Translations under genes and position numbers: made by a program
Notes under the pieces: model-generated
Seen by the model: only the letters and a program-made list of their open reading frames with translations
Databases searched by the model: none
Told to the model about the DNA's origin: nothing
Shown: piece after piece, positions 1-26,412 of the stretch
Layout: every line of letters starts with the position of its first letter
How positions within the stretch are numbered: position 1 is the first letter of the stretch
Origin: Ignavibacteria bacterium
GTDB lineage: Bacteria; Bacteroidota; Ignavibacteria; Ignavibacteriales; Melioribacteraceae
Assembly (NCBI GenBank): GCA_009773205.1
Contig: WPAE01000032.1
Span: 1-39,219, forward strand
DNA length: 39,219 bases
Direction of reading: 5' to 3'

Positions 1-104
1 GAAACATCTTTTATGTTAAAAAGCAAGCTGCTTCAATAAGTAAGGGAGTAAAGATTTTGTCTTATTTCATATAATAATGTGTTTGATAAAGTCGTTAATC
101 AATT

Positions 105-250
105 CAATTATTCTTTTATTAGCGGTCATACTTCAATGGGTTTAGTAGCCGCAAGATAGTGGTTAAAATAAAATTGTTGTGGCTTGCAATCTGAAAAAAG
201 CGGACAACTTACTTTAGTGCCGCAGATGTTTCCCTGCAATCAGCCACAAA
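105..250 (-). ncRNA. Bridge/seeker RNA of the IS110-family element
   Basis: Read on the minus strand, this noncoding end folds into two successive internal-loop hairpins, the architecture known for IS110/IS1111 guide RNAs. First (target) loop: outer stem UUGUGGCU/AGCCACAA (complements of 242-249 and 177-184), then GAAACAUCU (224-232), a GCGG/CCGC hairpin (220-223 with 200-203), then UUUUUUCAG (191-199). GAAACAUCU is identical to the left target flank including the CT core. UUUCAG is the complement of CTGAAA at the right flank. Second (donor) loop: ACUAUCU (154-160) matches the IS right end ATTATCT at 6 of 7 bases, a second GCGG/CCGC hairpin follows (149-152 with 122-125), then AUAAAAG (113-119), the exact complement of the IS left end CTTTTAT (8-14). 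A weak CAAUU/AAUUG stem closes it. Transcript ends are estimated. Confidence 0.82.
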
Positions 251-278
251 TAAAATTATTCTTTGATTAAGACTCCTG

Positions 279-1355
279 TTAATTAACAACACTTATTGCA
301 TACCGCTGTTTATTCTTTAGAACAAATCTTATTCTGTTTAGTAATTTTCTAGCAATTTTAATGATTGCTTTTTGTGCTATCATTTTTTTCTTGTAATCAG
401 TGTAAGCCATCATAAGTGCCGGGTCTTTTCTTATGGCTATCCAGGATGCTTCTATAAGTAAATATCGTATGTGGCTTTTTCCTCTCTTTGTCATTTTACC
501 AGTAATTATTTTTTCTCCGCTGGAATGTTCTCCGGGAGATAGACCAATATAGGATGCCAATTCATCTAAATTCTTAAATCGGTTGATATCAACAATCTCC
601 ACTAAAAAGTGCATGGCTGTCAATAACCCTATCCCGCTGATACTTATTAACAGTTCTGTAAATTCACGATAACGGTCAGTTTTTGACAGATGACGTATTT
701 GTATTACTAATGATGCTATTGTCTTTCGTGTAGAAAGTAATCTTTCTATTTGTATGTCCAGCGCTAAACGTCCACTTTCGGTTTTGAATTCAATTTTCTC
801 TAACCACTTTATAAATGCTCTTGACCAGTTACCAACAGCTTTTTCTTCTGATATTGTTATGCCGTAAAAACCAAGAATCGATTTTATCTGATTCTTTATT
901 CTAGTTTGTTCTTTTGTTAATTGAATATGTAACCGAAGAAGCGTTCTATCTTCTTGGACTTCTCTGCTTGGTGTGTAAATGCTCATTAATTCTCCACTAC
1001 GTAAACAACGAGCTATTTTTCTACAATCCACTTTATCATTTTTTGTGCGTCTCTCTTTGTCCATCGTTGGCACATCTGCTGGGTTTACTACTATGGAGTT
1101 TATTCCCAACTGTTCCAATTGTTCGTGTGCCCAGAATCCACAATACCCCGCTTCGTATGCGCTAAAATAATTACCTTGTGGAAAATTTTTACGTAAATAT
1201 TTATTTAATATTTCGGGTGCGGGTTCCATTGTAAATGTTTTATGGTCTATAGATTCACACAATATATTTACCTTCCAACTTTTTTTATGATTATCGATTC
1301 CTATAAATATATTTTTGTTTGTAAAATCTAATGTCCTTCTTTCTCTTGTTTCCAT
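279..1355 (-). CDS. IS110-family (DEDD) transposase
   Basis: 358 aa, the usual length for this RNA-guided recombinase family. The N-terminal RuvC-like DEDD domain shows IGIDNHKKSW (D21), YEAGYCGFW (E68) and KNDKVDCRKIA (D107, D110). The C-terminal Transposase_20 domain has the SISGIG helix-hairpin region near residues 238-243 and GLSPGEHSSGEK, with the candidate nucleophilic serine at 278/279, followed by TKRGKSHIR. The ATG has GAGGAG about 6 bases upstream. A short inverted repeat (TCCTCAAAG/CTTGAGGA, 1371-1398) overlaps that ribosome site and could dampen translation. No frameshift or stop is present, so the enzyme is probably functional. The transposase acts with the RNA encoded just downstream to recombine the circular IS junction with a target carrying a CT core. 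Confidence 0.93.
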   Translation of the reverse strand: METRERRTLDFTNKNIFIGIDNHKKSWKVNILCESIDHKTFTMEPAPEILNKYLRKNFPQGNYFSAYEAGYCGFWAHEQLEQLGINSIVVNPADVPTMDKERRTKNDKVDCRKIARCLRSGELMSIYTPSREVQEDRTLLRLHIQLTKEQTRIKNQIKSILGFYGITISEEKAVGNWSRAFIKWLEKIEFKTESGRLALDIQIERLLSTRKTIASLVIQIRHLSKTDRYREFTELLISISGIGLLTAMHFLVEIVDINRFKNLDELASYIGLSPGEHSSGEKIITGKMTKRGKSHIRYLLIEASWIAIRKDPALMMAYTDYKKKMIAQKAIIKIARKLLNRIRFVLKNKQRYAISVVN

Positions 1356-1419
1356 TTTGTTCTCCTCAAAGATTTTCCCTAATTTACTTGAGGAACTCTA
1401 CTTTTTAAACATATTATCT

Positions 1420-1558
1420 GAAATATTTACGCTAAGTCATGGTGAGCTTGTCGAACAATGACACTACAAACGAAATTACCACACTTCCTGCCTCGCCTTC
1501 GGCTCATCAGGCGGGCGACTGGCTCAGTGTGACAATAGATTAATTATTCAGAGGTTTC
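1420..1558. repeat. Inverted-repeat element, copy 1 (split by the IS)
   Basis: With bases 1-9 this forms one copy of a small element also present at 26228-26412. Shared blocks are GAAATATTTACGCTAAGTC followed by ATGGTGAG near the left end, GGCTCATCAGGCGGGCGACT in the middle, and TGACAATAGATTAATTATTC near the right end. Terminal inverted repeats are GAAACATCTGAA and TTCAGAGGTTTC (one mismatch). The IS at 10-1419 separates the first nine bases from the rest. No coding capacity. The left target duplication lies outside the window. Confidence 0.75.
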
Positions 1559-1588
1559 TGCTTAATTAATTATTTTTTTGGAGATTAG

Positions 1589-2428
1589 ATGAAAAACAAA
1601 ACTCTTCCAGTTCTTTTAGTAATTATCATTAACACTATAATCTTTTCTGCAGGCGGCAAAACCAAATCCTTAGATGGAGTAGAAATTGCTTACACTGTTT
1701 ATGGTAAAGGTGATACCGCTCTTGTTTTTGTTCACGGCTGGGGCTGGGATCAATCTCTATGGAAAGGACAGGTTTCTAAGTTTTCTTCGAGACACAAAGT
1801 AGTTACGCTTGATTTAGCAGGACACGGACAATCGGGTAAAAACAGAAAGAATTTTACTATTAAAGCATTTAGCGATGATGTTGTTTCTGTCATCAATAAA
1901 CTGAAACTTTCTAAAGTTATTCTAGTTGGTCACTCAATGGCAGGAATTATAAACCTTGAAGTTTATAGACAAGCAAAAGAAAAAATAGTTGGCTTGATTG
2001 GCGCTGACACATATCAGATTTTTCAACAAGGAGAAAACCCTAAAAACGCGGAAGATTATTTAACCACCTTCAAAGAAAATTATTTAGCAAGTGTGCGCGA
2101 GTATGTTAGAACCTTGTTCTTAGATGATGCAGATACTACTTTTGTTGAAAACATTGTGAAGAGAATGCAAAAATTACCGTCTAAAACCGGAATGGATATC
2201 TTTAGAAATATTTATCAATACAACTCTCTAAAAGCGGCAGCCGATTTACAGCCAAAGATAATTACAGTAAACGGGCAAAAATTTAAAGTTAAAGAGGCAG
2301 AAAATATTAAACTTATACCAGGCTTTTCTGCTAAATATATTCCTGGCACAGGTCACTTTCCAATGTTAGAAAAACCAGAAAAATTTAATGAACTGCTGCA
2401 GGAAGCTATTATTGAAATAGTTAAATAG
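1589..2428 (+). CDS. Secreted alpha/beta-hydrolase
   Basis: 279 aa. Residues 1-21 form a hydrophobic export signal (MKNKTLPVLLVIIINTIIFS), so the product is probably periplasmic or membrane-anchored. The fold is recognised from the oxyanion strand VFVHGWGWD (47-54), the LDLAGHGQS segment (74-82), the nucleophile elbow GHSMAG with Ser116, and the C-terminal GTGHFPMLEKP with His256. The catalytic acid is not certain; D140 is a candidate by position. The closest general class is the lipase/esterase or haloperoxidase-like hydrolases; the substrate cannot be read from sequence. GGAG lies about 8 bases upstream of the ATG. It stands alone, with an IS-disrupted repeat before it and over 400 bp of spacer after it. 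Confidence 0.8.
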   Translation: MKNKTLPVLLVIIINTIIFSAGGKTKSLDGVEIAYTVYGKGDTALVFVHGWGWDQSLWKGQVSKFSSRHKVVTLDLAGHGQSGKNRKNFTIKAFSDDVVSVINKLKLSKVILVGHSMAGIINLEVYRQAKEKIVGLIGADTYQIFQQGENPKNAEDYLTTFKENYLASVREYVRTLFLDDADTTFVENIVKRMQKLPSKTGMDIFRNIYQYNSLKAAADLQPKIITVNGQKFKVKEAENIKLIPGFSAKYIPGTGHFPMLEKPEKFNELLQEAIIEIVK

Positions 2429-2859
2429 TATTGCAGCATGTAAGAGATTGTTGTTTCGATTCAGCCGCAGACATTGAAAGAATCTCTATTCTAATAATTG
2501 CGCCAACTCTAAATTGAAGTTAGAGATTCTTCGTTCCTAAACTCGTTCGGAATGATATATTCGAGTTGTGCAACACTCTCAAATATTTTTCGAAAGCTCC
2601 CGTAAATTTTAATTAACAACAGTAAAAGCTAATAATTCAGTGTTATAAATTCTCGTCCCAAAAACTTTTCTGTTTTTCCGTACAGCACGGCTTCTGCAAA
2701 AGAGGCGGAAATTAATTCAACCAGAATGTTTGAGAAAACTAATTTACTAAAGCTACTAAATCGTATATTACTAACTCGTAATATAATTTTTATTCTTTGT
2801 TTTTGCATTCTTGTTACTGCTGTTGAATTATGATAATTTTGCACTTCAAAGGAAAAAGT
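2429..2859. other. Intergenic region with an inverted repeat
   Basis: About 430 bp without a convincing gene. It holds a perfect 10-bp inverted repeat, AAGAATCTCT (2478-2487) and AGAGATTCTT (2522-2531). The right arm continues into CGTTCCTAAACTCGTTCGG, which resembles the small palindromic repeats common in this bacterial group. The rest is AT-rich and presumably includes the mnmE promoter, which I cannot place. Confidence 0.5.
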
Positions 2860-4227
2860 ATGTTGCAAAGTCTCTCTCAAAACGAAGATACAATAGTTGC
2901 TCTTGCAACGCCAAACGGTGTTGGCGCAATTTCTGTTATTCGTGTAAGCGGTCCAAATTCAATTTCATCAGTAGATAAAGTTTTTTTAGGCAAGAAGAAA
3001 TTAGCCGATTGCACATCTCATACAATTCATTATGGAAAAATTATTGATGCTTACGGAGAAACCATTGACGATGTTTTGGTTTCAATTTTTTTGAACGGAC
3101 AGTCTTTTACCGGCGAAGACAGTATAGAAATAAGCACACACGGAAGTCCTTTTGTAGCACAAAAAGTTATTTCAATTTTGCTTAATGAAGACGTAAGATT
3201 AGCAGAGCCGGGCGAGTTTACAAAGCGAGCATTCTTAAATGGAAAGATAGATTTAGCTCAAGCCGAAGCCGTTGCCGATGTTATTAATTCCCGCACAGAG
3301 GTTTCTCTTCGCGGTGCGCGCAATCAATTAGATGGAATACTCTCCAGCAAAATTGATTATCTGAGAGAGAAGCTAATTCAAACTTCGTCACTTATAGAAC
3401 TTGAGCTCGATTTTGCCGAAGAAGACATACAGTTCATGTCAATGCCAGAAATTGTTAAAAATTTAGAGGAGATTAGTGATGAGCTTGATCAACTCCTCTC
3501 AACTTTTTCTTTTGGAAAAGTAATTCGCGATGGAGTTAATGTAGCGCTTGTAGGCCCGCCAAACGCCGGTAAGTCTTCGCTATTAAATTATTTCCTTAAA
3601 GAGGCAAGAGCAATTGTCAGCGAAGTTCCCGGCACAACACGAGATATAATTCGAGAAGACCTTTTCATTGATGGAATTTTATTTAGACTGTCTGATACAG
3701 CAGGCATACGCGCGACAGATGACCATATTGAAAAAGAGGGAGTGTTTAGAAGTCGTAATGCTCTTAAAGAAGCCGATATTGTTCTTTTTTTGAACGATAC
3801 AACAATTGAATTTTCCGAGAACCTTTATCAAGAAATATTAGAGCTAAACCACAAAGAGAGAGTTGTTTCTGTAGGCAACAAAGTAGATTTGGAAAAACCA
3901 CATAATGAAAATTACGATGTTTTGATTTCGGCAAAAACCGGCGAAGGGATTGAAAAGCTATTTGCAAAGTTGAAAGAGGTTGCTCTTGGCTCATCCAGTT
4001 ATACCGAAAAAACAGCAATAGTAACCAACATTCGACATTTTGAAGCGTTAAAAAAAGCCAACGAAAGTATAGAATCTGCAATGAACTCTATAAAAGAAGG
4101 TTTAACCGGAGAATTTATTTCTGTTGATCTGAGAAATGCAGTAAGCTCGTTAGGAGAAATAATAGGAATAATTACCGCAGACGATATTCTGAACAATATA
4201 TTTTCAAAATTTTGTATAGGAAAGTAA
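2860..4227 (+). CDS. mnmE: tRNA uridine-5-carboxymethylaminomethyl modification GTPase MnmE
   Basis: 455 aa from the ATG at 2860, preceded by AAAGGA; an in-frame start 30 bases upstream lacks a ribosome site. MnmE and MnmG together modify U34 of certain tRNAs. The N-terminal folate-binding domain starts at DTIVALATPNGVGAISVIRVSG. The inserted G domain has GPPNAGKSS (about residue 232), PGTTRD, DTAGIR and NKVD. The protein ends FCIGK, carrying the conserved C-terminal cysteine (C452). Length and motifs are complete. Its stop codon abuts a parS-like palindrome, and mnmG follows after 149 bp. Confidence 0.97.
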   Translation: MLQSLSQNEDTIVALATPNGVGAISVIRVSGPNSISSVDKVFLGKKKLADCTSHTIHYGKIIDAYGETIDDVLVSIFLNGQSFTGEDSIEISTHGSPFVAQKVISILLNEDVRLAEPGEFTKRAFLNGKIDLAQAEAVADVINSRTEVSLRGARNQLDGILSSKIDYLREKLIQTSSLIELELDFAEEDIQFMSMPEIVKNLEEISDELDQLLSTFSFGKVIRDGVNVALVGPPNAGKSSLLNYFLKEARAIVSEVPGTTRDIIREDLFIDGILFRLSDTAGIRATDDHIEKEGVFRSRNALKEADIVLFLNDTTIEFSENLYQEILELNHKERVVSVGNKVDLEKPHNENYDVLISAKTGEGIEKLFAKLKEVALGSSSYTEKTAIVTNIRHFEALKKANESIESAMNSIKEGLTGEFISVDLRNAVSSLGEIIGIITADDILNNIFSKFCIGK

Positions 4228-20520: not shown

Positions 20521-20915
20521 AGATGGTTTATGTCTATAAGCCGAATTCTGTAATCCCGCGTTTTTGCGGGACGGCAATTATTTATCTAGCCACAGCATTA
20601 CTGCTGTAATCTTGCGGTCTACCCGAAGGAATTAAAGCGAGCAACTCTTTCATCCTAAGATGAAGGTGGGGTTTGCCTTGTTCCGCACTTATGCGGAATC
20701 TCTTACGAGACCCTCGATGTTACCATCGAAGCGGTGAGCTCTTACCTCGCCTTTTCACCCTTATCCCGCTTTAGGCGGGACGGTATTTTTTCTGTGGCAC
20801 TTTCCGTATCTCAACAAAGAGATCCCGGGTGTTACCCGGCACCATGCTCTGTGGTGTTCGGACTTTCCTACCTCCCGAGTAAATCGGGTGATCAACTGCC
20901 CAACATAAACCATCT
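20521..20915 (-). ncRNA. rnpB: RNase P RNA (bacterial class A type)
   Basis: The minus strand contains the universal elements in order: GAAAGTCCGAACACCACAG near the 5' end, GGTAAGAGCTCACCG in the middle, and ACAGAATTCGGCTTA near the 3' end. The ends are set by a perfect 12-bp P1 helix: AGATGGTTTATG at the 5' end (complement of 20904-20915) pairs with CATAAACCATCT at the 3' end (complement of 20521-20532). Length about 395 nt is normal. It is the catalytic RNA that matures tRNA 5' ends. recJ follows 26 bp downstream. Confidence 0.96.
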
Positions 20916-26227: not shown

Positions 26228-26412
26228 GAAACATCTGAAATATTTACGCTAAGTCATGGTGAGACTTCGACACAATCACTGCCTTCGCAGTGATTGGCTC
26301 AGACTGACATCCAGTACTCAATATTTTTTTGTGTCGGCTCATCAGGCGGGCGACTGGCTCAGCTTGCCTGCTGCAAGCAGGTGTGACAATAGATTAATTA
26401 TTCAGATGTTTC
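26228..26412. repeat. Inverted-repeat element, copy 2 (uninterrupted)
   Basis: 185 bp with perfect terminal inverted repeats GAAACATCTGAA and TTCAGATGTTTC, and a 5-bp direct duplication TTACA at 26223-26227 and 26413-26417. Inside are hairpins such as AATCACTGC-CTTC-GCAGTGATT (26274-26295). It is the empty-site reference for the IS at 10-1419. No gene inside. The remaining spacer 26418-26693 is AT-rich and shows nothing recognisable except the TlpA ribosome site. Confidence 0.88.

What the first reader, a model, noticed from the sequence alone, without database searches (positions are those of the whole stretch)
10..250. IS110-family bridge RNA whose two guide loops can be read directly from the sequence
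The RNA from the minus strand has a target loop with GAAACAUCU and UUUUUUCAG, and a donor loop with ACUAUCU and AUAAAAG. These match, respectively, the left target flank with CT core (9 of 9), the right flank complement (6 contiguous), the IS right end (6 of 7) and the IS left end complement (7 of 7). Both loops hold a GCGG/CCGC hairpin between their halves. Four independent matches in the right order and geometry make this a strong prediction of a functional programmable recombinase with its RNA downstream of the transposase.
Basis: partly seen in the sequence, partly recalled or inferred. Interest (0 to 1): 0.92.

Follow-up and report, generated by a model that had tools for sequence, protein, structure and literature searches.

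The report
RNA-guided IS1111-type jumping gene
This is a small bacterial jumping gene that carries a guide RNA whose two loops spell out both its own ends and the place where it inserts, here the end of another, much smaller repeated mobile element; it is a clear new example of a known kind of system.

Summary
Window 10-1419 is an IS110-family element of IS1111 type: transposase at 279-1355 (-), predicted guide RNA at 99-254 (-). The target is the inverted-repeat end of a MITE-like element; the own genome holds 37 GAAAC[A/C]TCTGAA ends against 1 for the reversed control. Two close relatives (92%, 89%) have the loop GAAACCTCT, and their flanks carry the same A-to-C change. In 29 relatives the target guides match their own flanks better than each other's (0 of 20,000 permutations; four flank controls null, one borderline). 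Anchored donor guides follow the elements' own ends. Twelve of 16 base pairs change on both sides. A covariance model finds the RNA in 32 of 37 sources, 19 of them not used to build it. Guide RNAs, IS1111 architecture and insertion into a MITE are in print, so this is a new member of a known kind. No transcript or activity was measured.

The parts
10..1419 (-). IS1111-type insertion sequence, 1,410 bp, with the terminal-extension convention 7 bp left / 3 bp right
   Evidence: Uninterrupted target copies in the same genome define the junctions; ends compared with relatives
279..1355 (-). DEDD transposase/recombinase, 358 aa
   Evidence: Pfam PF01548 and PF02371 above cut-off; NCBIfam NF033542 'IS110 family RNA-guided transposase' 209.8 bits, cut-off 140; motifs FIGID, YEAG, KNDKVD, GLSPGEHSSG (reading D21/E68/D107/D110 as the DEDD set rests on recall)
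99..254 (-). predicted bridge RNA (long seekRNA)
   Evidence: Covariance model match 130.4 bits (the window is one of the 13 model sequences); compensatory changes
224..232 (-). left target guide GAAACAUCU
   Evidence: Matches flank 1-9, 9/9
191..199 (-). right target guide UUUUUUCAG
   Evidence: 6 contiguous with CTGAAA at 1418-1423
200..223 (-). hairpin inside target loop (GCGG...CCGC)
   Evidence: Folding; helix 2
154..160 (-). left donor guide ACUAUCU
   Evidence: 6/7 with IS right end 1413-1419; 7/7 in L047
113..119 (-). right donor guide AUAAAAG
   Evidence: 7/7 with IS left end 8-14
122..152 (-). hairpin inside donor loop (GCGGC...ACCGC)
   Evidence: 100% of cells paired, helix 3
13..23 (-). 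subterminal inverted repeat, copy at the RNA end (CTTTTTAACAT)
1401..1412 (-). subterminal inverted repeat, copy at the transposase-start end (ATGTTTAAAAAG)
21..26 (-). -35-like TTGCTT; with -10-like TATGTT at 1408-1413 it gives a 17-bp-spaced promoter-like junction when the ends are joined
   Evidence: TTG at this spacing in 24 of 25 elements (TATGT[T/A] and ACATAA had been used to find the ends)
1..9 (+). left target flank, outer part of MITE terminal inverted repeat plus CT core
1418..1558 (+). rest of the interrupted MITE-like element (core CT 1418-1419 counted with the IS by convention); its other inverted repeat at 1547-1558

Best explanation
An IS1111-group insertion sequence that moves by RNA-guided recombination. 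The RNA downstream of the transposase folds into a target loop and a donor loop. The target loop pairs with GAAACATCT and CTGAAA across the CT core of a MITE terminal inverted repeat. The donor loop pairs with the joined ends of the excised circle. The transposase (RuvC-like DEDD) then exchanges strands at the core. Joining the ends creates a promoter that drives the transposase and RNA together. Shown by sequence: ends, target, guide matches, co-variation, structure conservation, junction promoter motif. Inferred: that the RNA is made, binds the protein and directs strand exchange, and that the circle and its promoter form.
For: Exact guides and partners. Repeated uninterrupted target ends in the same genome: 37 GAAACMTCTGAA, reversed control 1. 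Loop/flank co-change in L047 and L048. Permutation of flanks among elements: LTG 9-mer 7.86 versus 6.27 (sd 0.14, n=29), RTG 6-mer 5.43 versus 4.69 (n=23), both 0 of 20,000. Anchored donor guides: LDG 4.13/6 versus 2.84 (n=23) and RDG 6.52/7 versus 6.11 (n=25), both 0 of 20,000. Held-out loci placed by a covariance model: RTG 6.00/7 versus 3.66 (0 of 20,000, n=12), LDG 4.50/6 versus 3.08 (0 of 20,000, n=12), LTG 4.57/9 versus 2.94 (4 of 20,000, n=14). Structure: 90.4% of cells paired versus 77.0% shuffled, 12 of 16 pairs changed on both sides versus 7.1 shuffled. Protein resembles ISCro4 and IS621 transposases in the PDB.
Against: No transcript or activity data. Only one copy in the own genome. 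The fold of this sequence alone is only mildly better than shuffles, and one of five structure measures, further pair types, does not exceed shuffles (23 versus 21.6, 150 of 500). The LDG matches 6/7, not 7/7, here. Without the structural anchor the LDG is not clearly better than permuted (715 to 3,906 of 20,000 by length), and one of two offsets was null. One flank control, distal left flank, is borderline (6.00 versus 5.78, 1,097 of 20,000). A first attempt to place the LTG slot failed. Some relatives show no good LTG match or 61 (L049, L063, L083, L093). In the genome holding L048 the only pattern match, L127, does not continue like the flank, so a repeated target is not shown there. Relatives share ancestry, so permutation counts are not strict probabilities.
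Confidence: 0.95

Rival explanations
1. The matches are chance or an internal repeat of the element: the string GAAACATCT belongs to the IS ends and its repetition in the non-coding region has no guiding role.
For: Short strings in an AT-rich region; a single copy in the genome.
Against: GAAACATCT is present in uninterrupted targets without the IS; own-flank matching in 29 relatives beats permutations, while non-complemented, reversed, wrong-strand and distal right-flank controls are null and the distal left flank is borderline.
Confidence: 0.02
2. A decayed element: the RNA architecture was functional in ancestors but this copy is now inactive.
For: Single copy in the own genome; one mismatch in the LDG.
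Against: Open reading frame intact with conserved motifs, all four guides and both ends present, and the loop matches its present target 9/9.
Confidence: 0.15
3. Only the short target-loop RNA acts (seekRNA view); the donor loop is not used as a guide and end recognition is by protein binding to the subterminal inverted repeats.
For: The seekRNA paper found the short 70-100 nt RNA sufficient for ISEc11 (PMC11187229, section 14); the subterminal repeats are strongly alike across the relatives, though the search for them used part of the motif.
Against: LDG and RDG track the element's own ends across relatives (LDG).
Confidence: 0.15

Closest known systems
IS1111-group insertion sequences with seekRNA (ISEc11, ISKpn4, ISPa11, ISPst6; PMC11187229: abstract, sections 6, 9, 12, 13, 14 and passages seen)
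   Same: RNA downstream of the transposase; subterminal inverted repeats with 7/3 bp extensions; top-strand match 5' of bottom-strand match; promoter on joining the ends; GL-P----SG motif
   Different: Different target; transposase 358 aa against the 330-350 aa given for the group; a donor loop readable as a simple internal loop
IS621 / IS110-group bridge RNA (PMC11208160: abstract, sections 7 and 12 and passages seen)
   Same: Target loop and donor loop each with left and right guides around a CT core; DEDD recombinase
   Different: RNA lies at the opposite end of the element; guide order relative to the transposase strand is reversed
IS1111 inserting into QMITE2 (PMC5896051: abstract and passages seen); IS4321/IS5075 targeting Tn21-family terminal inverted repeats (only the reference title seen)
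   Same: An IS1111-type element aimed at a MITE or at another transposon's inverted repeat
   Different: Different mobile element; here the guide RNA that explains the aim is read out

Membership tests
IS110 family (DEDD transposase) | DEDD_Tnp_IS110 plus Transposase_20 domains | tested here: met
IS1111 group | Long non-coding region downstream of the transposase | tested here: met
   269 bp downstream (10-278) versus 64 bp upstream (1356-1419)
IS1111 group | Subterminal inverted repeats, usually 11-13 bp, with extensions of 7 and 3 bp | tested here: met
   ATGTTTAAAAAG / CTTTTTAACAT, 12 and 11 bases (one base missing in one copy); extensions AGATAAT and AAA; rule from PMC11187229
IS1111 group | Top-strand match 5' of bottom-strand match in the RNA | tested here: met
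   LTG complements the transposase strand at the right flank, RTG the other strand; rule
IS1111 group | GL-P----S(T)G motif; 330-350 aa | tested here: inconclusive
   motif met (GLSPGEHSSG); length 358 aa slightly outside; rule
IS1111 group | Transposase falls within the IS1111 clade of a tree | not tested
   No reference set of IS1111/IS110 transposases was fetched and no tree was built
Bridge RNA systems | Two loops whose guides co-vary with target and donor | tested here: met
Bridge RNA systems | RNA expressed, bound by recombinase and required for recombination | not testable with these tools
   needs RNA-seq of the complex and a recombination assay

The most novel reading that the evidence does not exclude
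In this subgroup the target core and the donor core need not be identical. The left junction reads AG in 25 of 25 elements with a left end. The right junction is not AG in 8 of the 23 elements whose LTG could be placed, and in 5 of those 8 the LTG's own core bases follow the right junction (1 has AG, 2 neither). This would mean RNA-guided recombination across mismatched cores, leaving donor bases at one junction and target bases at the other. No empty site was examined for these relatives.
Probability: 0.35. Interest if true: 0.5.

Novelty: new member of a known kind. Interest (0 to 1): 0.33.

Why it matters
It adds a natural example in which all four guides can be read from sequence, within a family where the model finds the RNA in 31 further loci. 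That tests the two-loop bridge model in IS1111-type elements, and it explains by base pairing why the element sits in the inverted repeat of a MITE. The family supplies candidate programmable recombinases with varied targets.

Tried and rejected
Weight-matrix placement of the LTG slot worked poorly: own 3.24 of 9 versus 2.68, with most slots misplaced. It was replaced by a whole-region best match and then by a covariance model. The first donor-loop anchor often picked the target-loop hairpin; one offset was null (1.86 versus 1.99) and the other positive (3.14 versus 2.20). The nearest-hairpin rule was set after seeing that. In one search several LTG slots are off by one (for example L053, L056, L057, L090) and were scored as they stood. 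The 13 RNA regions behind the model had been cut at a fixed distance from their best flank match; the held-out loci were searched whole.

Rows dropped: of 37 loci placed, 29 were used. Dropped were L050 (right end not of the expected form), L055 and L094 (flank shorter than 9), and L064, L082, L084, L088, L095 (no right end found). The rule for right ends was changed; four loci (L056, L086, L087, L092) were re-set by a motif, which altered L087 and L092 relative. The structure alignment A3 used 13 of the 27 RNA regions listed. Weaker and second-copy matches were not examined. In one search the motifs TATGT[T/A] and ACATAA had been used to find the ends, and a TTG or TTT was favoured, so only the constant spacing of the TTG is informative there. 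An earlier count said 31 sources and 18 held-out; the answer gives 32 and 19.

The viral-contig scan found no relative. Chance and internal-repeat explanations were rejected. Joining flanks to find an empty site of this exact locus in a relative was considered and not done; uninterrupted paralogous targets served instead.

Full report
What is there. On the minus strand, a 358-aa transposase (279-1355) carries both IS110-family Pfam domains and matches NCBIfam 'IS110 family RNA-guided transposase' above its cut-off. By sequence its solved relatives are the ISCro4 and IS621 transposases (E 2.8e-6 and 2.3e-5).

Ends and target. The window begins nine bases outside the element. Contig C465 overlaps it by 99 bases and continues the flank. 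The own genome has one copy of the transposase. The target, however, is repeated. One search printed 14 places found through the right flank: the window's own interrupted copy and 13 uninterrupted ones. Of these 13, 12 read AAACATCTGAAATATTTACGCTAAG (10 with a G in front) and 1 reads AAATAT before the core. The 12-base end GAAACMTCTGAA occurs 37 times (35 with A, 2 with C, one of the two being the far end of the interrupted copy in the window) against 1 for the reversed control. Among the loci read, 11 complete copies of 138-312 bp have this end, or a near variant of it, inverted on both sides, and 9 of the 11 have identical 5-base direct repeats outside (read from the flanks printed there). 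This is a MITE-like element. The interrupted copy in the window does not show such a direct repeat (ACTGC outside one end, TGCTT outside the other). The IS lies in the end that reads CTGAAA; in 10 of the 11 copies the opposite end reads CTGAAT, which would pair one base less with the RTG.

Close relatives. One scan of genome contigs gave two relatives: L047 (Melioribacter MAG, 92%) and L048 (a MAG labelled Patescibacteria, 89%). Their RNAs are closely similar to the window's, but the LTG reads GAAACCTCT. Their flanks read GTAACCTCT and GAGACCTCT (8/9 each), so the A-to-C change is shared by loop and flank. Since both relatives share it, this may be a single event. A search of their two genomes for RWRACCTCTGAA gave 3 and 1 matches against 2 and 1 for the reversed control, so the string itself is not enriched. 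Read out further, 2 of the 3 matches in the genome of L047 (L128, L129) continue like its flank, as uninterrupted repeat copies; L126 and, in the genome of L048, L127 do not. A variant MITE with GAGACCTCTGAAAAA at one end also occurs in the window's own genome (L041). The LDG of L047 matches its end 6/6 where the window has 5/6.

Family-wide test. Relatives came from 97 genomes and 391 genomes of the class, which overlap. Of 37 loci placed, 29 had usable right ends and flanks. Permuting flanks among elements: LTG 9-mer own mean 7.86 against 6.27 (sd 0.14, maximum 6.79), 0 of 20,000; without the window and its two close relatives 7.81 against 6.25, 0 of 20,000 (n=26). RTG 6-mer 5.43 against 4.69, 0 of 20,000 (n=23); the signal fades when the RTG is taken longer (9 bases: 8 of 20,000; 10 bases: 408). 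Uncomplemented, reversed and wrong-strand flanks and the distal right flank gave nothing; the distal left flank is borderline (1,097 of 20,000). The donor side was weaker in this unanchored test: RDG 93, 1 and 25 of 20,000 for 6, 7 and 8 bases; LDG 715 to 3,906. With the hairpin as anchor it is clear: LDG 4.13 of 6 against 2.84 (n=23) and RDG 6.52 of 7 against 6.11 (n=25), both 0 of 20,000 (4 of 29 could not be anchored). Related elements share ancestry, so these counts are not strict probabilities.

RNA structure. On 13 aligned RNAs, three helices (target-loop outer stem, target hairpin, donor hairpin) have 90.4% of cells paired against 77.0% shuffled and 33-50% when slid. 12 of 16 pairs change on both sides against 7.1 shuffled; four of five measures beat all 500 shuffles, and 'further pair types' does not (150 of 500). 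A covariance model built from them matches 32 of 37 sources, 19 of them not in the model (E 1.4e-15 to 0.013); missed were L050, L063, L082, L089 and L095. In the held-out loci the model, which was not given flanks, places the RTG slot so that it matches the own flank 6.00 of 7 against 3.66 (0 of 20,000, n=12; 4 of 12 are 7/7), LDG 4.50 of 6 against 3.08 (0 of 20,000, n=12), and LTG 4.57 of 9 against 2.94 (4 of 20,000, n=14, with several slots one base off).

Circle junction. Joining right end, core and left end gives TTGNNN - 17 bp - TATGTT in 24 of 25 elements; L080 lacks the TTG. TATGT[T/A] and ACATAA had been used to find the ends, so the informative part is the constant position of the TTG. 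In the window the junction is TTGCTT and TATGTT. The seekRNA paper reports a promoter made by joining the ends (PMC11187229, sections 12 and 14).

Classification. Downstream RNA, subterminal inverted repeats with 7/3-bp extensions, top-strand match 5' of bottom-strand match, and the GL-P----SG motif put it in the IS1111 group by the criteria of PMC11187229. The protein is slightly longer than the stated range, and no tree was built. Bridge RNAs were predicted in 93.0% of IS1111 elements by PMC11208160 (section 12). Insertion of IS1111 into a MITE is in print (PMC5896051, abstract and passages). This particular element was not seen in the listings of the paper searches; those searches cover only the held library.

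Verdict. The element is a well-supported new member of a known kind. What is new is the particular guide set, its MITE target with a loop that has changed together with the target, and family-level support for the donor loop in IS1111-type elements.

Noticed in passing
window 26228-26412: An intact copy of the MITE-like repeat (185 bp, inverted repeats GAAACATCTGAA, direct repeat TTACA) lies in the same window.
   Followed up: yes
L053, L056, L057, L061, L090 (also L049, L051, L052, L062, L086, L091): The dinucleotide at the right junction differs from the AG usual at the left junction; in the five named first the LTG follows the right one.
   Followed up: partly
own genome, L097-L123 and L021, L041: MITE-like family with short inverted repeats and, in 9 of 11 complete copies, 5-bp direct repeats; the transposase that moves it was not looked for.
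   Followed up: partly
L048: A close relative of the element lies in a contig binned as a Patescibacteria MAG, either transfer or mis-binning.
   Followed up: no
window 20521-20911 (-): Bacterial RNase P RNA class A (206.2 bits).
   Followed up: no
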